From: a virus
Strand: one strand, 5' to 3'
Virus record (IMG/VR): IMGVR_UViG_3300029787_000037
Location: 1 to 59,756 of that record
DNA length: 59,756 nucleotides
The notes beneath the pieces were generated by a model, which did not search any database, was not told the origin of the DNA, and worked only from the letters and a program-made list of their open reading frames with translations. This document shows positions 7,697 through 33,440 of the stretch, piece after piece; position 1 is the stretch's first letter, and the number at the start of each line of letters is the position of its first letter. A program made the translations under genes and the position numbers.

Positions 7697-8851
7697 CTAA
7701 ACTGCTATCTGTAATTCGATAGGCGCAGAAGCAGTCGCATCATGTAGGTCTTTAGATGCATGATTGGCATACTTCATAGTCTGGGATATGTCGTTATGCC
7801 CCATAATTTTTGACAAGTATGCTAGCGACATACCCCGCCTTAAACGGTGTGCCGCATAGGTGTGACGAAGATCATGGAAACGGAAGTCCGTCACCTTGGC
7901 GAACTCCTTAGTCTCTTGCCACGCACGTTTAAGGTCTTTGTAGTGTGTGCGGCTTCTTTGGTTCCAGAAGACATATGCATCAGGACACCTTGGTTCAGAC
8001 ATCATCCGCTTCAAGGTTGGTACAAATTCCTGGGGGACAGGCACTACTCTTTCTTTATTCCCCTTACATATCTCAGGGGGTAAGCGGAACTGATAACCAG
8101 AAGTCTGGTTTTCAATCTCCAGATAATCCCATCGATTAAGGAACAGTTCGCCTTGTCGCAGCCCCATCAAGAACGCCATGAGTATGATGTCATGCATGTC
8201 TGGGTTACAGCATTTCCGTGACGCTGCTAACAAACGCTCCATCTCTTCTAACTCTAAGAAGCGAGTGCGCTCAACAAGAGTGAAGTCTGACTTATCATAG
8301 TCTCTTATGGGGTTGGTCTTGATGACTGATGTAGTTCTCTTTGCATGTGTAAAGATACTACTCAGGGTTTGGAGATCCCCTAGTATGGTGCGACCTGTGA
8401 TGTATGAACCTTGTACGTTTTTGTCCAACCTCCGAGATTGGACATAAGCATGGATAGTTTCATTACTCATGTCCAAGAGGTTGACGCCACGAAACACAGG
8501 CAGAATTCGCCTCACAACCTTCATATGATCTTTCGCATACTTCTCAGACTTTGTGTTGAGTTCCTTAATATGCGTCAGATTTGTCAGGTCCTTCTCGGGA
8601 TGGAACCAACCAAACCTATCATGCAGAAAGTTGTATGCGGCATCCTCAAATAGGATCGCATCCTTCCTTAATGTGATAGTCCCTGCCAGATACTCATCAC
8701 GTTTTTCGATAGCCAGTTTCGCGGCCTCTATAGTAGAGGAACACTCCAATGGTATCTGAACAGGCTTACCTTGGTGTTTGAATTGGGAGTAGTATTTGGT
8801 TCCCCCTTTTCTTTCCCGCACCAGTAGGTACGGGTACTTCTTTGTAGCCAT
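7697..8851 (-). CDS. int: Tyrosine-recombinase integrase
   Basis: 384 residues from ATG 8851, preceded by AAAGGA; a TTG at 8866 is less likely. The N-terminal arm-binding domain is followed by a SAM-like core-binding domain (about 75-175) and the catalytic domain. Active-site residues are visible: Arg in 'MGLRQGELFLN', the 'HDLRHTYAAH' box, and 'MGHNDISQTMKYANH' with the catalytic Tyr. It should integrate the circular genome at a host tRNA-Thr using the adjacent attP. It is transcribed with the excisionase-like gene 11 bases upstream. Confidence 0.95.
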   Translation of the reverse strand: MATKKYPYLLVRERKGGTKYYSQFKHQGKPVQIPLECSSTIEAAKLAIEKRDEYLAGTITLRKDAILFEDAAYNFLHDRFGWFHPEKDLTNLTHIKELNTKSEKYAKDHMKVVRRILPVFRGVNLLDMSNETIHAYVQSRRLDKNVQGSYITGRTILGDLQTLSSIFTHAKRTTSVIKTNPIRDYDKSDFTLVERTRFLELEEMERLLAASRKCCNPDMHDIILMAFLMGLRQGELFLNRWDYLEIENQTSGYQFRLPPEICKGNKERVVPVPQEFVPTLKRMMSEPRCPDAYVFWNQRSRTHYKDLKRAWQETKEFAKVTDFRFHDLRHTYAAHRLRRGMSLAYLSKIMGHNDISQTMKYANHASKDLHDATASAPIELQIAV

Positions 8852-8862
8852 GCCACATCCTT

Positions 8863-9033
8863 TCAATTATGTAGTTCTGTCAAACGGTCACCATTAAAAC
8901 GCCAACCTCTTCCTACTCGAAAGACGATGCCTTCTGGCACCTTGTTTTCAGCAAGCCAGCGGTAGATGGTGCGCCTTGATAATTTTAGCTGATCTGCTGT
9001 TTCTTGTGGAGTTAATAAATTTTTAATTGGCAT
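8863..9033 (-). CDS. Excisionase-like HTH protein (MerR/HTH_17 type)
   Basis: 56 residues. 'LLTPQETADQLKLSRRTIYRWLAENKVP' followed by 'FRVGRGWRFNGDRL' is the classic helix-turn-helix plus wing of small DNA-binding proteins that act as excisionases or directionality factors. ATG 9033 has an AAGGAG-like site upstream. It lies immediately 5' of int and is probably co-transcribed with it. It faces a rightward HTH gene across 63 bases, so the spacer should hold divergent promoters. A transcription regulator is the alternative. Confidence 0.85.
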   Translation of the reverse strand: MPIKNLLTPQETADQLKLSRRTIYRWLAENKVPEGIVFRVGRGWRFNGDRLTELHN

Positions 9034-9363: not shown

Positions 9364-9721
9364 AGAGCATCTTCTCTAGATACCACTGAGCCTTTTTCAG
9401 ATCTTCCTCTTGGTTCTTATATTTATATCGCCAGATATATTTGATGCAGTTGCCTTGGCAATAGGAACGAAACCCATCGACATCTAATGCCGCTTCAATG
9501 GCATCGATACATTCAATCCCCGCCTGATTATAGTGCGGCGGGGAGTTCACCATGTCTTCTGGTGGGAGATCAAAAGTGTCTTCCACCTTGTGGCCTTTCG
9601 CACGGTGCTCTTCCCGTGCCTTTTGTATCATCCTAAGATAATAATCGTGACTGCGCTCCCCTTTGTAGGGGGTTGTGTCACGATCCACAGGTGCCGCCTT
9701 TTCCGGTAATGTCACAGACAT
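9311..9721 (-). CDS. DUF3310 protein (phage nucleotide kinase-like family)
   Basis: 136 residues from ATG 9721, which lies 44 bases inside the end of nrdJ. The conserved core 'VNSPPHYNQAGIECIDAIEAAL' and 'YCQGNCIKYIWRYKYKN..DLKKAQWYLEKML' is the DUF3310 / SaV-like signature. Family members are annotated as possible nucleotide kinases, though the activity is poorly established. Its place directly after the ribonucleotide reductase supports a link to nucleotide supply. The last 15 residues overlap the convergent HTH gene and look unconserved. Confidence 0.85.
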   Translation of the reverse strand: MSVTLPEKAAPVDRDTTPYKGERSHDYYLRMIQKAREEHRAKGHKVEDTFDLPPEDMVNSPPHYNQAGIECIDAIEAALDVDGFRSYCQGNCIKYIWRYKYKNQEEDLKKAQWYLEKMLSTFASSLSTPSSSHNCT

Positions 9722-11354
9722 CGATTGCCTCCATACTTTCGTCAAATTTCTCACCAAGTTTTGCCTTCGCCTCACTGTACGGCACCGCCGTAAGCGGTTG
9801 ACCACCGCGACTTCCATCGGGATAGCAAGTAAAGCCCCTAAGACGATGAGCATATTTTGCTAACGTCTCGGCAAACGGTTGGACTGTGTCTGGATTGTTT
9901 AGCTTATGTCCCCACTGTGGGAGATTGATGGTCGAGCTAATCGACATATCAACGTAGTCTTGAACATCCGCCTGGAACTTTATGCGCTGCTCGTAATTCT
10001 CAGACAAATCGAGGCTTGTCTGGATCTTGTCTGGATCAACGTCATATCTATCAATGACGTTTTGCGCTGCGGTATCCACCACATACTGGTACTTCCATCG
10101 CTTGTTCTCTAGGTAACGGCGTTTGAAAGCGACAGCGAACAGGGGTTCGATCCCAGAACTGGTACTTGCCAAAATGGCTATCGATCCGGTGGGAGCGATA
10201 GCTCTACGAGCGACGGGCTGGCTCAAACTAAGATCGTCAGCACCGCGAGAAGCTGCTTGGTCGGACACATTTTTATAAACGTGTAACCACCGCTTGAGTT
10301 CCGGTGTAACCTCATAGGGCATCCGTCTCTGGAGCAACCATTCATGGATGCCCATCAGACCAAGGCCTAACCGCCTGTTCTTCTCGCGGACACCATAGAT
10401 ATGATCATAAGGAAGCTCGGCCTTGATTGTGCCGCAAAGTAGGAACTTAGTAGCCAACTCGGTACATAGGCCGAACTCTTTGATGTTCTCAATACGAGAC
10501 ATATTGAGAGAGCCAAGGTTACAGACATCACCGTCATCGGAAGATGTTACTTCAGTGCAAGCGTTACGAAGTGTCTCGGTCTCTTTGTCAAAGAAGTTAA
10601 ATGAGAACCCTGGCTCTCCGGTACGCATGGCTTGTTCGACATTTGACAGCCAGACATCAGACAGTTTGCCCGTCTCCCAGTAGTCGGTTAGCCACTTAGT
10701 GTTCCAGTTAATGCTGATGTTAGTCATGTCCAAGTCAGCCTCGTAATTAAAGTCGGCTTGCTTGGCATCGGCTACGGAGAGGTCCGTGCCTTGGATCTTC
10801 TTACTATGCCAGTCCTTGGCTTTGAGGAAGTTTAGGACATCGGAATGGTCACAAGAAAGTGAGGCATAAATAGCAGAGCGACGGCTACCGCCTTGCATGA
10901 CGGTGCGGCCAATATTGTTGACTGCCTTCATCAGATCGATGGGGCCAGAGGCTATGCCGCCTGTCCCGCCTAGCTTAGAGCCAGCCCCACGCAAAATAGA
11001 ATAGTCAATCCCAATCCCGCCACCTGTCATCAGACACATCGTCGCATCGTGGACAGTCTTAGCCCACTGTTCGCGGGTGTCTTCCTCACAATTCAACAGG
11101 AAACAGTTGTTGAAGAACTTCCGTTTGCGACCAGCGTAATAGAGATACCTACCGCCTGGGATGAAACGCATGGTGGCGATCATCCACTTCAAACCGTCAA
11201 TATCTGTCTTGTCCAAAAGTCCTGAACAAACATCTTCAACCAAGGTGTTGGCTAGCTCGGGCCAAGTCTCAGCGTTCTCATGTTTATATTTCAGATTAAA
11301 AATGTCTTCTGAAAGGTGGTCACGGAAAATCTTGTTGTCGGCATTGATGCTCAT
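9678..11354 (-). CDS. nrdJ: Adenosylcobalamin-dependent ribonucleotide reductase, class II
   Basis: 558 residues, a short monomeric type. It makes deoxyribonucleotides from ribonucleotides using a B12-derived radical. Landmarks in order: 'PGGRYLYYAGRKRKFFNNCFLLN' near residue 70 with a redox Cys, 'MTGGGIGIDYS', 'GGSRRSAIYASL', the active-site 'NACTEV' near 267 with the thiyl Cys, 'CNLGSLNMSRI', 'APTGSIAILASTSSGIEP' near 392, and a C-terminal 'VCDITGKGGTC' pair that would be re-reduced. No small subunit or activase gene is nearby, which fits class II. It lies nine bases after polA, in the leftward replication operon. Confidence 0.92.
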   Translation of the reverse strand: MSINADNKIFRDHLSEDIFNLKYKHENAETWPELANTLVEDVCSGLLDKTDIDGLKWMIATMRFIPGGRYLYYAGRKRKFFNNCFLLNCEEDTREQWAKTVHDATMCLMTGGGIGIDYSILRGAGSKLGGTGGIASGPIDLMKAVNNIGRTVMQGGSRRSAIYASLSCDHSDVLNFLKAKDWHSKKIQGTDLSVADAKQADFNYEADLDMTNISINWNTKWLTDYWETGKLSDVWLSNVEQAMRTGEPGFSFNFFDKETETLRNACTEVTSSDDGDVCNLGSLNMSRIENIKEFGLCTELATKFLLCGTIKAELPYDHIYGVREKNRRLGLGLMGIHEWLLQRRMPYEVTPELKRWLHVYKNVSDQAASRGADDLSLSQPVARRAIAPTGSIAILASTSSGIEPLFAVAFKRRYLENKRWKYQYVVDTAAQNVIDRYDVDPDKIQTSLDLSENYEQRIKFQADVQDYVDMSISSTINLPQWGHKLNNPDTVQPFAETLAKYAHRLRGFTCYPDGSRGGQPLTAVPYSEAKAKLGEKFDESMEAIDVCDITGKGGTCGS

Positions 11355-22913: not shown

Positions 22914-23045
22914 CTACGGGCCATCACCCCGCATTTCTATTTGCTGTTCCACAAAGTCCTTAGCTTCAGCTTCGGACATGCCCTTGTCTAGGGCCTCTTG
23001 AAACCAGTCTTCTAACTGGCCTTGATAGACAGATGGTAAACTCAT
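22914..23045 (-). CDS. 43-residue acidic helical protein
   Basis: 43 residues: 'MSLPSVYQGQLEDWFQEALDKGMSEAEAKDFVEQQIEMRGDGP'-type composition (split here as an N-terminal WFQEAL helix, then SEAEAKDFVEQQIE). The start shares one base with the stop upstream (TAATG). It is the last gene of the leftward GC-rich module before the terminator. No function is recognised. Confidence 0.55.
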   Translation of the reverse strand: MSLPSVYQGQLEDWFQEALDKGMSEAEAKDFVEQQIEMRGDGP

Positions 23046-23464
23046 TAGCCTTCCTTTCCTAAATATGCTTTCAGATTTTCTAGAATGATTTCGATTGCGG
23101 CTAACGCCCCCGCACTAGGGTTGTCAGACAAATCCTCATCAACTTGGATGGGCGTACCTGTAGCAATCGACATTGCCCTTATCCGTTGGGCAACCCTCAG
23201 CCTCAGATAGTCCGCAACCCCTTTTGGTAGGGGGGTACGTCCGCTAGACCAGTTGTGATAGACAGCAGCGGTCAGACCAAACAAGCCGCGCAGTTCCTTC
23301 GGCTCCATGTCTAATGCCAACATGCATAGTCTGAACTGATCAGGTGACATAGTCCGCTGGCTTATACGCGGGTCATCCGTGGGGATAGCCTCAACATACC
23401 CAGCATTCTTACGGCTCCGATGGAACCGACTATCTAACAGTTTATCTGGCAGCATGTTAATCAT
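23045..23464 (-). CDS. HTH-containing small protein
   Basis: 139 residues. Residues about 38-85 ('TMSPDQFRLCMLALDMEPKELRGLFGLTAAVYHNWSSGRTPLPKGV') match the helix-turn-helix plan of bacterial XRE-type or MqsA-like domains, where 'VYHNWSSGR' is the recognition helix. The N-terminus is basic and the C-terminal helix holds Leu/Ile. It is coupled to the 19-codon ORF upstream by ATGA. A transcription regulator for the module is the likely reading. Confidence 0.65.
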   Translation of the reverse strand: MINMLPDKLLDSRFHRSRKNAGYVEAIPTDDPRISQRTMSPDQFRLCMLALDMEPKELRGLFGLTAAVYHNWSSGRTPLPKGVADYLRLRVAQRIRAMSIATGTPIQVDEDLSDNPSAGALAAIEIILENLKAYLGKEG

Positions 23465-23520
23465 AACAGCCTCATCAGGTTTTCAACCATCCGTGCGACA
23501 GCATCTATAAATTCCAGCAT
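23461..23520 (-). CDS. 19-residue coupled micro-ORF
   Basis: A 19-codon hydrophobic/amphipathic ORF ('MLEFIDAVARMVENLMRLL') whose ATG overlaps the stop upstream (TAATG) and whose TGA overlaps the next ATG (ATGA). It may serve only to carry ribosomes between genes, or encode a small membrane-active peptide. Confidence 0.4.
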   Translation of the reverse strand: MLEFIDAVARMVENLMRLL

Positions 23521-24047
23521 TACCGTCTCCTCTCATATGATCTGCCAACCTTCCAGAGGCGGCGGTCTTTACACAGGCGGCGAATACACCGCTCGTAATC
23601 CGTCTCTAGAAGATCATCGATGGCCTCGACTGACGCCATGAATTTAGCCTTCAGTTTCCGACCAGAGATTGTCTCTTCTTTGGCGAGGCCATCCATGATG
23701 ATGTCCATACCTTTCACCAGCCTGTCGCGTTTGCTCTCACGTTTAACGACTTTCTGTCGCCACTCTGGCATCTCAATGGCGGGTCTCTGGGCGGGTTGTA
23801 GAAGGCGTTGCCTCCGCTCATCTTCCTCGTATTGTTTGACCCTTTTCTCCCAGGCTGCACGTACTTCGGGACGCCTGTGATCAAGGAAGGCTGGGATTTC
23901 ACATAACAGATCGACCTCTGCATCCCTATTTACGACTGGCACCACTTCAGCCTTTGGCTTCGGCGTTGCTTTTGGCTTTCCCTTCGGGGTCTCCTGGCGG
24001 GAGACGATTGCACCCGCCAAGTCTTCCATGCCTACGTTATGCCGCAT
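23520..24047 (-). CDS. Basic protein of unknown function in the CobT-like module
   Basis: 175 residues from ATG 24047, eleven bases inside the upstream gene. A Lys/Pro-rich linker (residues about 20-40, 'KGKPKATPKPKAE') is followed by charged helices and a very basic C-terminus ('RRLCKDRRLWKVGRSYERRR'). 'ISGRKLKAKFMASVEAIDDLLETDYERCIRRL' looks like a winged-helix-type segment. Nucleic-acid binding is plausible. It sits third from the end of the leftward module, and no family is recognised. Confidence 0.55.
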   Translation of the reverse strand: MRHNVGMEDLAGAIVSRQETPKGKPKATPKPKAEVVPVVNRDAEVDLLCEIPAFLDHRRPEVRAAWEKRVKQYEEDERRQRLLQPAQRPAIEMPEWRQKVVKRESKRDRLVKGMDIIMDGLAKEETISGRKLKAKFMASVEAIDDLLETDYERCIRRLCKDRRLWKVGRSYERRR

Positions 24048-24720
24048 TTTTATCGGCCCCCTCGCCCACAACAGGGTTAACCAAACGTGCAGTGATCACG
24101 CTACGGGCCTCTAAAAATTTCTGGGTCATAGCTTCCCCGAAATTCTGATCCAATAACCACTTCGGTGCATCAAAGGCATGGAAGGTAATAAGACCGTCAC
24201 CTTTCATCTCTCCGACTTCTGTGATCTGTGAGAACGGCCACCATTCTGTTACCCCATTGATGCTTAACTGCACCGCTTTCTCAGTTGTGCGGGACTTAAC
24301 CGCATAGAAGCGGATGATGGGGGACGGGGTGCCAGACTTGCCCCCGCCGCTGGACCGTCCACGGGGGACAAAATTATCGATGCGACTATCTAGGTCTACC
24401 ACTGTGGTGCGGACGCTGGTATCCAGAACATTAAATGTGTTCTCATCTAGGTAGTTCATGCTGATCCAGTCGATGGCATAGTCTGCGTCATTATACAGAT
24501 ACGCCTCACCCAACCGACCTGTTACGTCCCGCTTATCTTTGCGGTGAATGACCAGTGCGGCGGGACCCCACTTGCCATCCAGCTTTACCAGTTTCACCCA
24601 GACCTTTGTATGGGGTGCGAATTTTCCGCTACGCCCCACCTTCGGGCCAGTGGTTGCACCAAATGGGAAGGCCAGTTCGGTGCCGTCTTGAAGTTTGAAT
24701 GTGTTTTGACTGATAGTCAT
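24037..24720 (-). CDS. Unknown protein following the VWA gene
   Basis: 227 residues. N-terminal beta-rich sequence 'FKLQDGTELAFPFGATTGPKVGRSGKFAPHTKVWVKLVKLDG' is followed by a Gly/Ser linker near 121-130 ('GRSSGGGKSGTPSP') and a second beta segment ('IIRFYAVKSRTTEKAVQLSINGVTEWWPFSQI'), then a helical tail. No known family. The leader repeats the (GACA)4 + AGCAACCGAAAGGA arrangement of the CobT-like gene, which suggests joint control. It may be a substrate, adaptor or DNA-binding partner of the ATPase/VWA machine. Confidence 0.6.
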   Translation of the reverse strand: MTISQNTFKLQDGTELAFPFGATTGPKVGRSGKFAPHTKVWVKLVKLDGKWGPAALVIHRKDKRDVTGRLGEAYLYNDADYAIDWISMNYLDENTFNVLDTSVRTTVVDLDSRIDNFVPRGRSSGGGKSGTPSPIIRFYAVKSRTTEKAVQLSINGVTEWWPFSQITEVGEMKGDGLITFHAFDAPKWLLDQNFGEAMTQKFLEARSVITARLVNPVVGEGADKNAA

Positions 24721-24772
24721 TTCTTGATCCTTTCGGTTGCTAAAAATTTGTCTGTCTGTCTGTCTGTCGTTT
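24721..24772 (-). promoter_or_regulatory. (GACA)4 + AGCAACCG leader of the gene at 24720
   Basis: On the minus strand: (GACA)4, then AATTTTT, AGCAACCG, AAAGGA and the ATG. It fills the gap between the VWA gene and the gene at 24720, and matches the leader before the CobT-like gene block for block. Confidence 0.65.
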
Positions 24773-24840
24773 GATGCAGGTGCATCGTCATGTCCACCAG
24801 ACCCGATGTTCTGGGCCTGATGGACATTGCGTTGAACCCG

Positions 24841-25740
24841 CTAGCTAAAGTGAGCCTTTCGGTACTTGTCGCTCTCGCGTATCAACGTATCGAGAACCTC
24901 CGTGCAGAGGTTCCCAGCATGGCAACCATCGATGCCAACGGGGAAAGTGGAGTTGATTTTGACAGAACCAATGCCAACCCCGATGGCTTCAATGCCCCAC
25001 GCCGTTAATAGTCTGACGATGCTAGCCTCTCGCGGCCCAACGCATCCATCTGTCAGGACTAACATGACCTTGCGGTCTTCTGGACGGGACCGCATTTGAA
25101 GGCCAGCCCATGCCATGCATTTATCTAGCGGGGTCCCGCCCACGGATTTGATACGTGCCACAAACCCTTCGCGCTTAATCCAGGGGTCTCTGAACCCCTT
25201 GATCAGGGTGCCGCCGCGCCCCGTGACATCACCGCCATAGTGGTTAGATGTTGTTTTACCTTCACTGATACAGGCACCTTCATCCCTGGACCGCCAGTAT
25301 CCATTCGCCCGATTGCCTTGGGCGTCGACATAGGTTTGGCATTTGTCGTGCCGTCTATCTTCAATACCAGGGAAGGCCATCATGTTGAATGTGACCCCTG
25401 CCTCTTCCAGTGCATCGCCTAACACCAGGGCTAGCCCATTGGCGTTATATTGGCGTATGCCGCCCATGCTGCCCGAATTGTCGATCAGGATGGACACGGC
25501 GGTGGTGAAACCCTTTTCCTTCCATTTTGTTTTGAAGACGTTGGTGTTTCCCGTCTTAACCGCTGACAGGCGGCGGGTATCTAACCGCCCTGCCTCGCGG
25601 AGACGTTTCACGCCCTGTCTGTCTGGGTTCAGCAGTAGCCGTGCCAGCTTGGCTTTCAGGACTGAAGTGCTAACCCGCATTGTCTTGCGAATTTCCTTAG
25701 TGGCTTTCGCCCGTGCTCTGAAATTTGCATCCGTTGCCAT
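24841..25740 (-). CDS. VWA-domain protein, like the C-terminal half of CobT
   Basis: 299 residues. 'AGRLDTRRLSAVKTGNTNVFKTKW' near residue 48 and 'VSILIDNSGSMGG' near 85 match the CobT C-terminal region. The MIDAS is complete: D-x-S-x-S, the Thr in 'SVGGTPLDK' near 225, and 'MLVLTDGCVG' near 250. A long insertion (about 115-215) follows the MIDAS strand. VWA proteins clasp a metal ion and a partner, here presumably the CobS/MoxR-like ATPase. Strong GGAGG lies nine bases before the ATG, inside the end of the preceding gene, so the two halves of CobT are split but coupled. Confidence 0.88.
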   Translation of the reverse strand: MATDANFRARAKATKEIRKTMRVSTSVLKAKLARLLLNPDRQGVKRLREAGRLDTRRLSAVKTGNTNVFKTKWKEKGFTTAVSILIDNSGSMGGIRQYNANGLALVLGDALEEAGVTFNMMAFPGIEDRRHDKCQTYVDAQGNRANGYWRSRDEGACISEGKTTSNHYGGDVTGRGGTLIKGFRDPWIKREGFVARIKSVGGTPLDKCMAWAGLQMRSRPEDRKVMLVLTDGCVGPREASIVRLLTAWGIEAIGVGIGSVKINSTFPVGIDGCHAGNLCTEVLDTLIRESDKYRKAHFS

Positions 25741-25744
25741 TGTC

Positions 25745-26926
25745 TTAGTCCTCCAAAATGCCCATGAAAATTTCGTTAGGGTTCATTACTCCGATATCGA
25801 CGCCATGCTCCTCAAAGCCCTCCAGCATCGTGTGGCGTTCTACAATTTCATCTACAAGGCTTCCGATATCGCGGCCCGAATGTTCCGCAATGTGCTTGTC
25901 ATCCAGGGGGGACCCTGCATCCCCATTTTCGGAGTACCCACGGCTAGGGCCTTCGCTCTCGCCTTCGCCTTCGGGGCGTCCTTCGCCTTCCTGATCGGAC
26001 CCGCCGCTGCCGCCGCCTTCGCCTTCTTGATCGGACGCACCGCCCTGGCCCTGGCCTTCGCCTTCGCCTTCGCCTTCGCGGTTAGACGGTCCACCCTGAC
26101 CATCCTCTTCAGTAACGTCCCCGTCTTCGCTCTCGCCTTCGCCTTGGCCTTCGCCTTGGCCTTCATCTTCGCGGTCATCATCGTTGAATTCATCATCCGA
26201 CTTCGGCGGCGTTGGGCCTTCGCCTTCGCCTTCGCCTTCGGGCGGCTCTGGCGCGACCTGTTTTCCCGCCAAGTCTGCGAACCAACGGGCGGTCTCCAGA
26301 ATATCTTGTGTGTTTTCAGCGGCTGCAATTTCCGCAACGGCTCGTTCAAAGATAGCGAGGGTATCGGGGGGTATCCCGTCTAGCATCTCTGCCACTTGGT
26401 CCCCCAGGTTGCCATACAGTGCATGGTACGCCATCAAGTTAACGCAGTATCCCCACTGGTCCTCGCATCTGGGGTCAGGGGTCCCCATCTTCGCGCAATA
26501 GCTGGTAAGTGCTGCGAGAATGTTACGGGCGTTGCCAAACTGAAATTTGTTGATCAGTTCCCGCTCCTGGCGCGGGTCCTCAAAACAGTTCACCAAATGT
26601 GAGAGGCCTTCCGCACAGGCTTCCTTCCAGACCTCTACGTCTGTGTAGAGGTTATGCCCCATTTCATGGGCGGCGAACCCAGAGAATACATCTGCCTCAT
26701 AACGCGATAGAACCGCATTGGCTGGTAGGTATGGGAAGGTGATCTTTGTGCGGATCACCCGCTCACCTTCCGCATTGGTTTTGATGTTCCACGATGTGGA
26801 CGCCGTGTCCCCGTGGAAGTCCACCCGTACCGTCTCCACTTTTAGACCCGCATTGGCGAGACTGGTATGGCAAGATGCCTGTAAGGCGGTGCTCAGATCC
26901 TGTGCTATGACTTGTTGATGTTTCAC
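25745..26926 (-). CDS. CobT-like protein with HEMGH motif and acidic repeat linker
   Basis: 393 residues from GTG 26926, seven bases after AAAGGA; the longer frame upstream merely translates the (GACA)n leader. Residues about 75-140 hold 'FSGFAAHEMGHNLYTDVEVW', a zinc-metallopeptidase-type HExxH, and 'LVNCFEDPRQERELINKF', which resembles the CobT 'EQARVEAIG' segment and offers a third ligand Glu. Residues about 230-340 are repeats of Gly-Glu with Asp, Gln and Pro, as in the CobT acidic linker. The C-terminal 50 residues lead to where CobT would enter its VWA domain, which here is the next gene. Confidence 0.8.
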   Translation of the reverse strand: MKHQQVIAQDLSTALQASCHTSLANAGLKVETVRVDFHGDTASTSWNIKTNAEGERVIRTKITFPYLPANAVLSRYEADVFSGFAAHEMGHNLYTDVEVWKEACAEGLSHLVNCFEDPRQERELINKFQFGNARNILAALTSYCAKMGTPDPRCEDQWGYCVNLMAYHALYGNLGDQVAEMLDGIPPDTLAIFERAVAEIAAAENTQDILETARWFADLAGKQVAPEPPEGEGEGEGPTPPKSDDEFNDDDREDEGQGEGQGEGESEDGDVTEEDGQGGPSNREGEGEGEGQGQGGASDQEGEGGGSGGSDQEGEGRPEGEGESEGPSRGYSENGDAGSPLDDKHIAEHSGRDIGSLVDEIVERHTMLEGFEEHGVDIGVMNPNEIFMGILED

Positions 26927-26971
26927 TGTCTTGTCCTTTCGGTTGCTTTGTCTGTCTGTCTGTCTGTCTAG
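26927..26971 (-). promoter_or_regulatory. (GACA)5 + AGCAACCG leader of the CobT-like gene
   Basis: On the minus strand: (GACA)5 then AAAGCAACCGAAAGGACAAGACA before the GTG (given here as blocks). The box AGCAACCGAAAGGA is identical to that before the gene at 24720. Confidence 0.7.
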
Positions 26972-27027
26972 GGGTATTGTGTGAGGCCCCGCCGTGTATG
27001 CTGCGAGGCCCCAAGGCAATAACCCTA
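26969..27027 (-). other. Hairpin between the ATPase and CobT-like genes
   Basis: TAGGGGTATTG (26969-26979) can pair with CAATAACCCTA (27017-27027) with one mismatch, enclosing two GAGGCCCC copies. The stem includes the ATPase stop codon. There is no T-run, so this is more likely an mRNA-stabilising or processing stem than a terminator. Confidence 0.45.
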
Positions 27028-28530
27028 TTGGCTGAAGGGAAGGTCCCCTTCGGCTTCGTTGGCTTCGCCTTCTTGATCCTTCGCGGCGGCGGCGTCCAAC
27101 TCCGCTTGGACCGCTTCGGTATCTTCCCCGCGAATTGCAGCAATCATAGCCGCCTTGTGGTTATGAATATTCCAGAGTTGCACGGCGGTCTCCTGATCAT
27201 CAGGACGGGCCGCACCGATAACGGTGGACATGAACGCATGTTCAGGGGACCAGCCGTCCTTGATGGCACAAACAAAGGGGACAAGGGACCGCATCGACGG
27301 GCCGATATCGGCGGCTTGGCCTTCGCGCTCTGCCTTCCTAAGTACGTTGGCGAATGAAATCACCTTCTGTGCAGCCGCCTTCGTAATGGCGGCGTCCTTG
27401 GACAGGATAGTGGCTTCCAAGTCCTTGTCTGGATAGTCCACCCGCTCCTTGAAGGCCCAACGGTCCATCATGCTTGTGTCCTGTACCTGACAGCCGCTGT
27501 ACTGGCCTGTCAGGTCCCCATTACCGTTGGAATTGTCACAGGCAAATATCAGGACATCTTCGGCAATGTTGACCACTTCGCCCGTCTCCAGGGTAAACTG
27601 GCGGTCATCAACGTCCAGCATGTTGAGGAATACGAGGTCCGCTGGATCTGCGCGGAAAATTTCATCTAAGACAATCACGGCCCCCCGCTGCTTAAGTGCA
27701 TGGGTGAGGGAACCATCATTCCAAACCGTGTCCCCGTTTTCGATACCCATCGCCCCAACAAGTTCAATCGGGTTTACTGAGCGGGAAAAATTGATCTTAA
27801 AAAATGGGCGTCCGGTCATGGCCGCGAATTGTTTGGGAGCGGACGTTTTACCGGACCCCTTCGGACCCCATAGCAGTGCGGTGTAGCGGCCCCCGCTATT
27901 GTAGCCGCCCAGGGTTGCGAGTGTTTGGGCGATCTGCGGTTGCCACTGATAGTGAGATTTCAGCGGCGGGGTCTGGGGACAATCGAAAGTCTTGATCACC
28001 CCGTTCAGGCCTTCAACGCCGAATAGGTCTGTGGCGTAGGCGTCCTCGCCCTGGTTAACAGGGATGGTTTTGAGCTTCGGCTTGATTGGCCCTGCATCCC
28101 TGTTTGGGGCGGCGGCGGTATTATCCACGACCACTTTTGGCGCACGGGCGGCGGCGATTAATTCGCCTATCTTTTCCCGCTTTTCCGCATAGCCCAGGTT
28201 GGCTATGGCGTCGATCTCAGCCGTGTCGGGATCAACCCCAACGGGTACGGGGACTGGCTCCGCAATCGGTGCAGCCGCGACCGCTGCGGCCACAGACTGC
28301 GGCGGCGTTGGGCGTGGCGTTGATGCTGAGGGGGAAGGGGCGGGGGAGCCTTTAAGGCGTCCAAAGTCTGAAGGATCAATCCCCAAGGCCTGGGCGGTGT
28401 CGGTAATTTCAGCAACCCGTAGGGCCTCTGGTTTGATGTGTTTGAAACGGCCTGAAGTGTCCGCTTTCATCCGGTTACGAATTTCCGCGAGAATGGCGGT
28501 TCGTTGGTCTGGGCTGTATTTGTACTCCAC
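27025..28530 (-). CDS. AAA+ ATPase, CobS/MoxR type
   Basis: 501 residues from GTG 28530 with TAGGAG upstream. An N-terminal helical domain (about 1-60, 'ILAEIRNRMKADTSGRFKHIKPEALRVAEI') is followed by a Pro/Ala linker, then the ATPase: Walker A 'LWGPKGSGKTSAPKQF' near 219, 'KINFSRSVNPIELVGAMGI', Walker B 'VIVLDEIFRADPADLVFLNMLD' near 288, sensor 1 'VLIFACDNSNGNGD', and a C-terminal lid. 'FFKINFSRSVNPIELVG' is typical of CobS/MoxR ATPases, which remodel or power VWA partners. It heads the module with the CobT-like pair. Confidence 0.9.
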   Translation of the reverse strand: MEYKYSPDQRTAILAEIRNRMKADTSGRFKHIKPEALRVAEITDTAQALGIDPSDFGRLKGSPAPSPSASTPRPTPPQSVAAAVAAAPIAEPVPVPVGVDPDTAEIDAIANLGYAEKREKIGELIAAARAPKVVVDNTAAAPNRDAGPIKPKLKTIPVNQGEDAYATDLFGVEGLNGVIKTFDCPQTPPLKSHYQWQPQIAQTLATLGGYNSGGRYTALLWGPKGSGKTSAPKQFAAMTGRPFFKINFSRSVNPIELVGAMGIENGDTVWNDGSLTHALKQRGAVIVLDEIFRADPADLVFLNMLDVDDRQFTLETGEVVNIAEDVLIFACDNSNGNGDLTGQYSGCQVQDTSMMDRWAFKERVDYPDKDLEATILSKDAAITKAAAQKVISFANVLRKAEREGQAADIGPSMRSLVPFVCAIKDGWSPEHAFMSTVIGAARPDDQETAVQLWNIHNHKAAMIAAIRGEDTEAVQAELDAAAAKDQEGEANEAEGDLPFSQ

Positions 28531-31205: not shown

Positions 31206-33440
31206 ATGGCCCGTAAGCCTAGACAAGGCGACCAGTCCGAAATCGACAGTGTCGTTAATCCTACCGATCAGATACACGATAATGTTGCTGATGGTCGTAT
31301 TCCAGAGGCTGACCCCAGACAGCTTGGACCTTACGTTGACCCAGAAGTAGCTTTAGAAAACGCGAGGACAGACTTGGTCAAAGACGCAGTTAACGAGATG
31401 ACTGCGATGGAAACACTTGAAAGGACGGGACCTAAATATGATCAAGCACTGGTTGATGAACTTAATGCAGAAGATGAAGACCCTGTGGTTGTGGTTAAAG
31501 CAGAAGTTGAAAATGCTTCTGTCATGCCTGACCAACAAGGGCCTGAAGCTGTTGGTAATGCTCTTAACCGCGACGACAACGCTGCTGAGTGGTTGGACCC
31601 AGAAACTGAAAGAAAACTTATAGACTATGCGAGAGCGCACTTTGATCTCAGCTATGATCGTATCTCTGACCGATATGAATACTGGCGGGACAGTGAGGTA
31701 ACCCATGACATCTATGTCCCAGCGTCCGTTGTTGAACGAACTAGCTCTACCGCGAGAACCTTCTCAACAGGTACTCTTTCTCAAGCCGAGGCGGCTGGAC
31801 GCTATAACGCCAAGAGTAAGGTTATCGATCAGATTAAGACCCCTTATAGCCGTGCTATCTCTGATACGATTTGTACATACAACCTTGCGATTTTTGGTGG
31901 AGCACCACCGTTTAAGCTAGAGAGTTCCGGTGACAGTCGGCAGCGTCGATCAGCGAAGATTCTTGAACGGGAGCTTCACCGGAATATGCGGAAGGTTGGT
32001 TATGAACAACGGCTCTATCAAGTCTTTCTGGACAACAATCGTTACGGCATGGCCCCTATCGCCTGTTTCTATGGCGCAGATGGAAACGTGCCTGTTAATA
32101 TTGATCCTTGGGCTTACTTCCCTGACCCGAGGGTAACCAGTCAAAACCGACACGAAGCTGAGTTTGTTGGGTACAGGTCTTGGGCTTCTCGCACTACGCT
32201 TTATAGACGTAACCATTACCAGAACCTTGATCGTCTAGAACAGAACCGCCCTTCCACCGCTTGGCGTTCTAATTCTTATCTAAAGGAAGTCATACGAGGT
32301 CAGTCCATCGATCCAGCTTTAGCCAGTGCGGCTGAGGAGATGAGCGGGGCAGGGGCTAAGATTGGGTATGCACATATTCTAAATACCTTATATGTGTATT
32401 GTGATCCGAGACGATTTAATATCCCAGCACCTTTTGGTTTATATCGGATGGTGATTGCGGACGAGACAGTAATTATCCAATTCGATAAGTCTCCTTACCC
32501 GCACGATCAGATACCCGTCATTCATGGTGAAGCAAACTATGATGCTCACCGGACTTTCGCTACATCTCTTTATGATCTTTTGATGCCGCTCCAGCGATAT
32601 CAAGATTGGTTGCTCCGTACCCGTGTGGAGAATGTACAGAGTATTGTTCAGAACCGTTTGGTAGTTGATCCGAACCGAGTGAACATCCGAGATATTCTTG
32701 ACCCGAACTCAGCGCGATTAATTAGAACTCTTCCAGGCTCTAACCCGAGTGATGCCTTACTCCCATTGAATATTCCAGACGCAACTCGCAATTACTGGGC
32801 AGACATGGACACGGCTGGTCAGTTAATGCAGCGGGTGGCTGCTGCTTCGGACACTGCCCAAGGTATTCAAGCGGAGACTCAAAGAACGGCTACCGAGATT
32901 GCACGTTTAACTAGCCTTGGTCAGCAGCGTCTTGGGATGCAAGCACGGCTCTTATCTGCTTCTACGATCCGTCCCCTGGTGCGTCAGATGATATCGAACA
33001 CGCAGTTCTTTAAAGTTGATGGCGGGTTCATCGATCTTCCCGAGGAGGTGTCTAATGAGAACCCGTCAGGCACGGTAGGGTTCAATCGATCTGAGATACT
33101 GGGAGACTTTGACTATGTCGTTGTAGATGGCACGTTGCCTACATCTCCCGAGGAGAACTCAGAAAATATTATGCGCTCAATTCGTATCCTGTCCGAGACA
33201 GGCGCAGCCCAAGGGTGGGACATGAATAAATTTGTTGAGCGACTTATAGAGAGCTTTGGCTTCCATGATGTCGAGAATTGGAAAGCGGCTCCTCAACAAG
33301 TCATGCCTGATCAACAGATCCAACAAGAGCTAGCCGCTGGCAACATCTTACCGATGCAACAAGCCCAGCAAGAGATGGGTATGGGGCAACCACCAATCGC
33401 TCCAGAGCCTGACTTAGCTCCACAACCACAGGTCGGTTAA
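31206..33440 (+). CDS. Portal protein
   Basis: 744 residues, the size of large podovirus portals such as P22. N-terminal acidic arm (1-130), then the clip/wing core with 'YDRISDRYEYWRDSEVTHDIYVP', 'PVNIDPWAYFPDPRV', 'YPHDQIPVIHGEANYD', and the crown/stem helices with 'AASDTAQGIQAETQRTATEIARLTSLGQQRLGMQARLLSASTIRPLVRQM'. That last helix-turn-helix is the hallmark of phage head-to-tail connectors. The C-terminus is Gln/Pro-rich. It forms the dodecameric vertex through which DNA enters and leaves. Confidence 0.85.
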   Translation: MARKPRQGDQSEIDSVVNPTDQIHDNVADGRIPEADPRQLGPYVDPEVALENARTDLVKDAVNEMTAMETLERTGPKYDQALVDELNAEDEDPVVVVKAEVENASVMPDQQGPEAVGNALNRDDNAAEWLDPETERKLIDYARAHFDLSYDRISDRYEYWRDSEVTHDIYVPASVVERTSSTARTFSTGTLSQAEAAGRYNAKSKVIDQIKTPYSRAISDTICTYNLAIFGGAPPFKLESSGDSRQRRSAKILERELHRNMRKVGYEQRLYQVFLDNNRYGMAPIACFYGADGNVPVNIDPWAYFPDPRVTSQNRHEAEFVGYRSWASRTTLYRRNHYQNLDRLEQNRPSTAWRSNSYLKEVIRGQSIDPALASAAEEMSGAGAKIGYAHILNTLYVYCDPRRFNIPAPFGLYRMVIADETVIIQFDKSPYPHDQIPVIHGEANYDAHRTFATSLYDLLMPLQRYQDWLLRTRVENVQSIVQNRLVVDPNRVNIRDILDPNSARLIRTLPGSNPSDALLPLNIPDATRNYWADMDTAGQLMQRVAAASDTAQGIQAETQRTATEIARLTSLGQQRLGMQARLLSASTIRPLVRQMISNTQFFKVDGGFIDLPEEVSNENPSGTVGFNRSEILGDFDYVVVDGTLPTSPEENSENIMRSIRILSETGAAQGWDMNKFVERLIESFGFHDVENWKAAPQQVMPDQQIQQELAAGNILPMQQAQQEMGMGQPPIAPEPDLAPQPQVG

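What the first reader, a model, noticed from the sequence alone, without database searches (positions are those of the whole stretch)
24037..28530. Split CobS/CobT-like machine with an HEMGH motif and no CobN
Seen: a CobS/MoxR-type AAA+ ATPase, a CobT-like protein with acidic Gly-Glu linker and HEMGH, and a separate VWA protein with complete MIDAS, in that order and coupled. In CobT the linker and VWA are one chain. Established: CobS-CobT-CobN insert cobalt into hydrogenobyrinate, and MoxR-VWA pairs act as chaperones, also in an archaeal virus. Inference: with CobN missing and a putative zinc protease motif added, this may be a phage-specific remodelling or proteolytic machine. Three further module genes of unknown function (24037, 23520, 23045) would be its clients.
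Basis: partly seen in the sequence, partly recalled or inferred. Interest (0 to 1): 0.87.

Follow-up and report, generated by a model that had tools for sequence, protein, structure and literature searches.

The report
Split phage CobS–CobT-like AAA+/zincin machine
This phage carries a known kind of molecular machine, an ATP-driven protein remodeller with a partner that looks like a zinc protease, here with the partner made as two proteins instead of one; such gene pairs are usually labelled vitamin B12 genes, but their protease-type site is kept in phages and is missing from the true B12 enzyme.

Summary
On the minus strand lie a CobS/MoxR-type AAA+ ATPase (27025-28530), an HEMGH protein (25745-26926, GTG start) and a VWA protein with a full MIDAS (24841-25740). 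CobN is absent.

The interpretation needs correcting. HExxH was not added here: it belongs to the N-terminal domain (PF06213) of phage and plasmid CobT-like proteins. Canonical cellular CobT is the form that lacks it (0 of 24). In the 14 relatives holding both halves, the two are one chain. The window proteins align to that chain end to end, so this genome has a clean gene fission. Fission arose at least three times in my sample, twice at the same domain boundary. The HEMGH domain gives a confident model (pLDDT 93); its fold matches include several zincins, with low scores. Wherever flanks were long enough, CobS was adjacent (50 of 50).

Both halves of the idea are published: MoxR-vWA with an N-terminal metallopeptidase in jumbo phages (Iyer 2021), and split viral CobT without CobN (Liu 2021).

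Most likely it is an AAA+/VWA remodelling machine with a zincin-type peptidase, acting early in infection. Chelatase and pure-chaperone roles remain open. The 'client' genes are unsupported. New member of a known kind.

The parts
27025..28530 (-). CobS/MoxR-type AAA+ ATPase (501 aa, GTG start); Walker A GPKGSGKT, Walker B VIVLDEI
   Evidence: AAA_5 4.7e-19, CbbQ_C 1.4e-6, phrog_249 8.8e-43; PDB matches Midasin, NorQ, CobS
25745..26926 (-). CobT-like N-terminal half: zincin-like HEMGH domain (aa 1 to about 225), acidic Gly/Glu linker, short C-terminal tail; 393 aa
   Evidence: Homologous to the N-terminal part of the fused CobT-like proteins L011/L012; phrog_1576 positions 37-123; AF2 pLDDT 93, pTM 0.89; HHalign to cellular CobT N-domain E 5e-8
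26654..26668 (-). HEMGH codons (H87-E88-M-G-H91), in helix 75-94 of the model
   Evidence: present in all TerL-linked relatives
26564..26590 (-). Second motif NxxEDxxxE (N113, E116, D117, E121), in helix 109-127; candidate third zinc ligand
25880..26250 (-). Acidic Gly/Glu-rich low-complexity linker (approximate limits)
   Evidence: translation
25738..25758 (-). Fission point: GGAGG, stop TAA, 4-nt gap, ATG of the VWA gene (translational coupling likely)
24841..25740 (-). CobT-like C-terminal half: VWA domain with complete MIDAS (D87/S89/S91, GGTPL, LTDG), 299 aa
   Evidence: CobT_C 2.5e-9; phrog_1576 positions 461-583; aligns to L011 from residue 384 on
24037..24720 (-). Conserved downstream gene of unknown function (227 aa), C-terminal beta domain with an EKAxxI..W.pKS motif
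   Evidence: orthologs in clade; AF2 poor, pLDDT 64
23520..24071 (-). Lineage-specific gene (183 aa as listed), found only in the window and L011/L012; start probably 24047
23045..23464 (-). Small protein, probably helix-turn-helix regulator; the best-conserved gene of the block (69% to L011)
   Evidence: only a weak phrog_2328 repressor match, E 0.06

Best explanation
It is a phage CobS-CobT-like machine. A MoxR-type AAA+ ring (CobS-like) works with a VWA/MIDAS adaptor and a zincin-like (HExxH ... NxxED) domain. The last two normally form one CobT-like chain; in this genome that chain has been split by gene fission into two translationally coupled genes. Shown: homology, gene order, motif conservation, fission, absence of CobN. 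Inferred: the VWA and HExxH proteins associate non-covalently on the CobS ring, the ring unfolds or remodels a target protein, and the HExxH domain binds zinc and cleaves it or a partner. The target is probably met early in infection, because relatives of the pair sit among replication genes and not among virion genes.
For: End-to-end alignment of the split pair to fused relatives. 14 of 14 relatives with both halves are one ORF, with HExxH and the NxxEDPRxE segment kept in all. At least three independent fissions on the tree; the VWA protein starts 50 aa before the GRLD landmark in the window and 48-54 aa before it in most members of the other split clade (two members whose start was called mechanically further upstream give 72 and 79). 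CobS adjacent in 50 of 50 loci with enough flank. AF2 pLDDT 93, pTM 0.89, with HExxH in one helix and NxxED in a following helix. VIA-align matches include DUF885 (Z 5.6), selecase (5.1), BlaR1, ArdC, DPP III and M61. BFVD gives the CobT/VWFA phage family first, then SprT and M34 names. Intact motif in phages and plasmids against 0 of 24 in cellular CobT at the homologous site. The block diverges as fast as tail genes (26-47% identity) while TerL is 89%. Annotated neighbours in other phages are polymerases, primase, ligase, gp46/47 and a sigma factor.
Against: No proof of zinc binding or cleavage. No coordinates were available to measure ligand geometry. The PDB matches have low Z (5.6 at most) and unrelated TetR folds lie between them. 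Some phage relatives (nickie, ANB28) have lost HExxH and ICP2 has lost the Glu of NxxED, so peptidase activity is not needed in every member. Alignment A4 was selected for both motifs, so its invariant columns are not independent evidence.
Confidence: 0.5

Rival explanations
1. Viral cobaltochelatase subunits: CobST of the phage borrow host CobN to make more cobalamin, which feeds the phage's B12-dependent ribonucleotide reductase.
For: Homology to CobS/CobT; published proposal (PMC8651126); the window clade encodes a NrdJ-like class II RNR (TIGR02504 1.9e-64, best PDB match a B12-dependent RNR) and no NrdB.
Against: No CobN in any of 24 records; CobST phages also have class I RNR with NrdB (5 of 14 tested) or no RNR at all (Mae-Yong1326-1, CRP-810, ICP2); the matches to TIGR01650/01651 are far below cut-off; the phage form keeps the HExxH that chelatase CobT lacks.
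Confidence: 0.2
2. Chaperone for virion assembly, like p618/p892 of Acidianus two-tailed virus, possibly with processing of structural proteins as Iyer et al. 2021 proposed for jumbo phages.
For: MoxR-VWA precedent (PMC7824862; PMC7911831); HExxH lost in some relatives.
Against: The module is transcribed away from the structural operon here, and in other phages it lies among replication genes; HExxH and NxxED are kept in all members of this clade.
Confidence: 0.2
3. The split is an assembly or sequencing error, or a decayed gene, of an otherwise ordinary fused CobT-like gene; or the halves are joined by a programmed frameshift.
For: Nearest relatives are fused and no residue is missing at the junction, as a small frame change would leave it.
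Against: A good ribosome-binding site and ATG lie directly at the stop; the same split at the same boundary occurs in a separate clade, and another in L075; a split cobT is published for HHTV-2. A frameshift product would need a +1 shift within about 14 codons.
Confidence: 0.08

Closest known systems
MoxR AAA+ - vWA pair with N-terminal metallopeptidase of group 2.2 jumbo phages (Iyer et al. 2021, PMC7824862)
   Same: Same three functional parts and coupling of the AAA+ gene to a metallopeptidase-vWA protein
   Different: There peptidase and vWA are one chain; here they are two genes in a phage of about 60 kb. The jumbo-phage sequences were not compared directly
Viral cobST cluster, including split cobT of halovirus HHTV-2 (Liu et al. 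2021, PMC8651126)
   Same: CobS plus CobT without CobN; cobT split with the vWA in its own ORF
   Different: That paper calls the peptidase annotation mistaken and proposes hijack of host CobN; the HExxH domain found here speaks for a peptidase-type fold
T4-like cyanophage 'peptidase' (T4 GC146 / phrog_459) and CobS
   Same: HExxH ... NxxED, linker and DxSxS in one chain near CobS
   Different: Fused; very divergent sequence
Cellular cobaltochelatase CobT/CobS (TIGR01651/TIGR01650, PF06213, PF11775)
   Same: Domain order N-domain, acidic linker, VWA; homologous over the whole N-domain (HHalign E 5e-8)
   Different: Cellular N-domain lacks HExxH (0 of 24); works with CobN
CobT-like VWA proteins of conjugative plasmids (IncC and others)
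   Same: HExxH ... NxxED plus VWA
   Different: Plasmid context, with DUF3150 and toprim genes in some

Membership tests
Phage MoxR-vWA-metallopeptidase system (Iyer et al. 2021) | MoxR-type AAA+ gene adjacent to the vWA/peptidase gene(s) | tested here: met
Phage MoxR-vWA-metallopeptidase system (Iyer et al. 2021) | vWA domain with MIDAS | tested here: met
Phage MoxR-vWA-metallopeptidase system (Iyer et al. 2021) | N-terminal metallopeptidase-type domain | tested here: met
   HExxH and NxxED motifs; activity not shown
Phage MoxR-vWA-metallopeptidase system (Iyer et al. 2021) | Peptidase and vWA domains in one chain | tested here: not met
   Split in the window; met in its relatives. So it works like this system and descends from fused members, but is a split form
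Cobaltochelatase CobNST | CobN chelatase subunit in the same genome | tested here: not met
   PF02514 absent from the window; a host CobN could not be tested
Cobaltochelatase CobNST | Equivalog score for CobS and CobT | tested here: not met
   61 bits against 558.55 and 31.4 against 759.05
Cobaltochelatase CobNST | CobT N-domain without HExxH | tested here: not met
Zincin (gluzincin) metallopeptidase | HExxH in an active-site helix | tested here: met
Zincin (gluzincin) metallopeptidase | Third acidic ligand in a later helix | tested here: inconclusive
   N113/E116/D117/E121 conserved in helix 109-127, geometry not measured; ICP2 keeps D but not E
Zincin (gluzincin) metallopeptidase | Fold shared with solved zincins | tested here: inconclusive
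   best Z 5.6 (DUF885) and 5.1 (selecase); low scores
Zincin (gluzincin) metallopeptidase | Zinc binding and peptide cleavage | not testable with these tools
   needs purified protein

The most novel reading that the evidence does not exclude
Phage and plasmid CobT-like proteins are active AAA+-fed zinc metalloproteases aimed at host proteins, and the cobaltochelatase subunit CobT is a relative whose protease site has died. The widespread 'cobS/cobT' auxiliary metabolic genes of marine phages would then not be vitamin B12 genes.
Probability: 0.3. Interest if true: 0.75.

Novelty: new member of a known kind. Interest (0 to 1): 0.45.

Why it matters
Phage cobS/cobT are counted in many surveys as genes that boost vitamin B12. 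The sequence evidence here shows that the 'CobT' of phages has a protease-type signature that chelatase CobT lacks, and that the same genes occur with B12-dependent, B12-independent or no ribonucleotide reductase. It joins two separate descriptions of the same protein, and the natural fission gives two separable pieces for a direct test.

Tried and rejected
A VWA-only search of viral contigs found no close relative. Foldseek against the PDB gave nothing significant. A sequence profile against the PDB gave only E 0.8-0.9 to CobT N-domain entries, aligned in the right register. AF2 of g24037 was poor, so its fold is left open. A PF06213 match of the window protein itself was not found; the link runs through relatives and HHalign. 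The first tree script missed VWA domains because of a pattern error and was redone. I rejected replacement of the block from a distant phage as the cause of its divergence: window CobT still groups with L011 (support 0.988), which is also the nearest by TerL identity. A search of the literature library for CobT with HEXXH/zincin found no paper stating that cellular CobT is a dead zincin; that library is open-access only.

Full report
WHAT IS THERE. The window is the whole of a virus record of 59,756 bases. It has a SU10-type major capsid protein, TerL, a PolA-type polymerase, an integrase and a ribonucleotide reductase. On the minus strand, divergent from TerL, lie the CobS-like AAA+ gene (27025-28530), the HEMGH gene and the VWA gene (24841-25740), followed by g24037, g23520 and g23045. 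The HEMGH ORF is listed from TTG 27019, but relatives and a ribosome-binding site point to GTG 26926. A 393-aa protein of 100% identity is on record as A0A516LB66. The VWA protein has a full MIDAS.

THE SPLIT. PHROG 1576 is a 729-position single-chain family. Its positions 37-123 match the HEMGH protein and its positions 461-583 match the VWA protein. The two nearest relatives, L011 and L012, have the same gene order and a fused chain of 690-692 aa. The two window proteins laid end to end align over the whole of it with nothing missing at the joint. A search with TerL gave 34 loci; those that reach far enough carry the module, and in all 14 with both halves these form one ORF (several contigs are near-duplicates). 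At the window joint the HEMGH gene ends in TAA, with GGAGG 9 nt before the ATG of the VWA gene. A wider search of viral contigs found a second clade, and a single phage L075, in which the halves are also separate and near CobS. On a tree of 77 concatenated sequences the window sits inside a fused clade (support 1.0), the second split clade is united (0.999 for its core) and L075 sits inside a fused clade (1.0), so fission happened at least three times. In the window the VWA protein starts 50 aa before the GRLD landmark; in most of the second clade 48-54 aa before it. Halovirus HHTV-2 was already reported to have a split cobT (PMC8651126).

THE HEMGH DOMAIN. The unbiased samples are two. One is the TerL-linked clade, where HExxH and the NxxEDPRxE segment are kept in all sequences at a mean pairwise identity of 48%. 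The other is nine named phages found by their VWA domain, N-domain or CobS, of which seven keep HExxH. ANB28 and nickie have lost it; ICP2 keeps HExxH but has V in place of E in NxxED. The 65-sequence alignment A4 was chosen by a pattern that demands both motifs, so its invariant columns are not independent evidence. The domain is homologous to the N-terminal domain of cellular CobT. PF06213 matches CRP-810 over residues 3-264 (E 2e-15) and T5S1 (8.5e-11), and HHalign of A4 with 24 cellular CobT N-domains gives 216 columns, probability 94.8, E 5e-8. In that alignment HExxH faces DxxALRxxHHD, and 0 of 24 cellular sequences has HExxH in the domain; the Glu of NxxED is kept and its neighbour Asp is Gln in most. 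Plasmid relatives (IncC, Rhodanobacter, Geoalkalibacter, Erythrobacter) keep HExxH; one from Paraburkholderia does not.

STRUCTURE. AlphaFold2 gave pLDDT 93 and pTM 0.89 for the HEMGH domain: a helix, three strands, then helix 75-94 with H87ExxH91 and helix 109-127 with N113, E116, D117 and E121. Foldseek against the PDB found nothing significant. VIA-align's second look put DUF885 (5.6), selecase (5.1) and DUF885 (5.0) at the top and BlaR1, ArdC, DPP III, M61, neurolysin and ACE lower; that these are zincins is my knowledge of those families. The Z-scores are low and TetR-type folds lie between them. In the viral library, after CobT/VWFA phage proteins (E from 7.5e-7) and a halovirus vWA protein, the weak names include M34 and several SprT-like proteins. 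I read this as support for, not proof of, a zincin fold. The zinc geometry could not be measured.

GENOMIC CONTEXT. CobS lies within 3.5 kb on the same strand in 50 of 71 loci; the other 21 are cut too short to tell. In named phages the pair lies near DNA polymerase, primase, ligase, gp46/47, clamp or sigma-factor genes. Between the window and the co-linear relative G002, the block 23520-28530 shows 26-47% identity, while TerL shows 89, the next gene (31206-33440) 87, RNR 85, capsid 84 and DNA polymerase 67; apart from short or partial matches, only genes downstream of the capsid, in the likely tail region, are as divergent. This suggests contact with something that differs between hosts (inference). 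For two co-isolated cyanophages it was noted that syntenic peptidase genes had diverged into separate clusters (PMC3037559); whether those are this family I did not check.

COBALAMIN. No CobN occurs in 24 records. The window clade has a NrdJ-like RNR without NrdB, thus probably B12-dependent, which fits the published idea that viral CobST borrow host CobN (PMC8651126). But other CobST phages have class I RNR with NrdB, or no RNR, and 19 of 41 alphaproteobacterial genomes with canonical CobT above cut-off have no CobN match (some may be incomplete). So neither presence of RNR nor absence of CobN decides the matter.

THE SUPPOSED CLIENTS. g23520 occurs only in the window and L011/L012; other relatives have other small genes there. 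g24037 is conserved as a family but of unknown function. g23045 is the best-conserved of the three and resembles a small DNA-binding regulator (weak evidence). Nothing marks them as substrates.

VERDICT. The anatomy is real and is a split form of a published type: the MoxR-vWA pair with N-terminal metallopeptidase (Iyer et al. 2021, PMC7824862), which appears to be the same thing that others call viral cobST. The mechanism that I think most likely is an AAA+-driven remodelling machine with a zincin-type peptidase, acting early; chelatase and assembly-chaperone roles are rivals. The point I did not find in the literature held is that the chelatase subunit CobT looks like a version of this domain without its HExxH.

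Noticed in passing
window 9678-11354 (-): NrdJ-like ribonucleotide reductase (558 aa; TIGR02504 1.9e-64) without NrdB; shared by the clade.
   Followed up: partly
window 23520-28530: The CobS/CobT/g24037/g23520 block diverges as fast as likely tail genes, although TerL is 89% identical to the relative.
   Followed up: partly
L151-L170 and the genomes G025-G099: 19 of 41 alphaproteobacterial genomes with canonical CobT above cut-off show no CobN match, so cellular CobS/CobT may also work without CobN.
   Followed up: no
L047-L051 and plasmid hits: 1193 plasmid records, mostly conjugative, carry CobT-like VWA proteins; of five read, four have HExxH.
   Followed up: partly
L005, L006, L007: Stenotrophomonas phage ANB28 and Pseudomonas phage nickie have lost HExxH in the CobT-like protein, and ICP2 has lost the Glu of NxxED: repeated decay of the site.
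   Followed up: no
window 24037-24720, C-terminal part: Conserved motif EKAxxI...W.pKS.I...W...kxG in a small beta domain of unknown role.
   Followed up: partly
window 7697-8866 (-): Integrase (phrog_1, 8e-51) with no match in relative G002, so this phage may be temperate unlike that relative.
   Followed up: no
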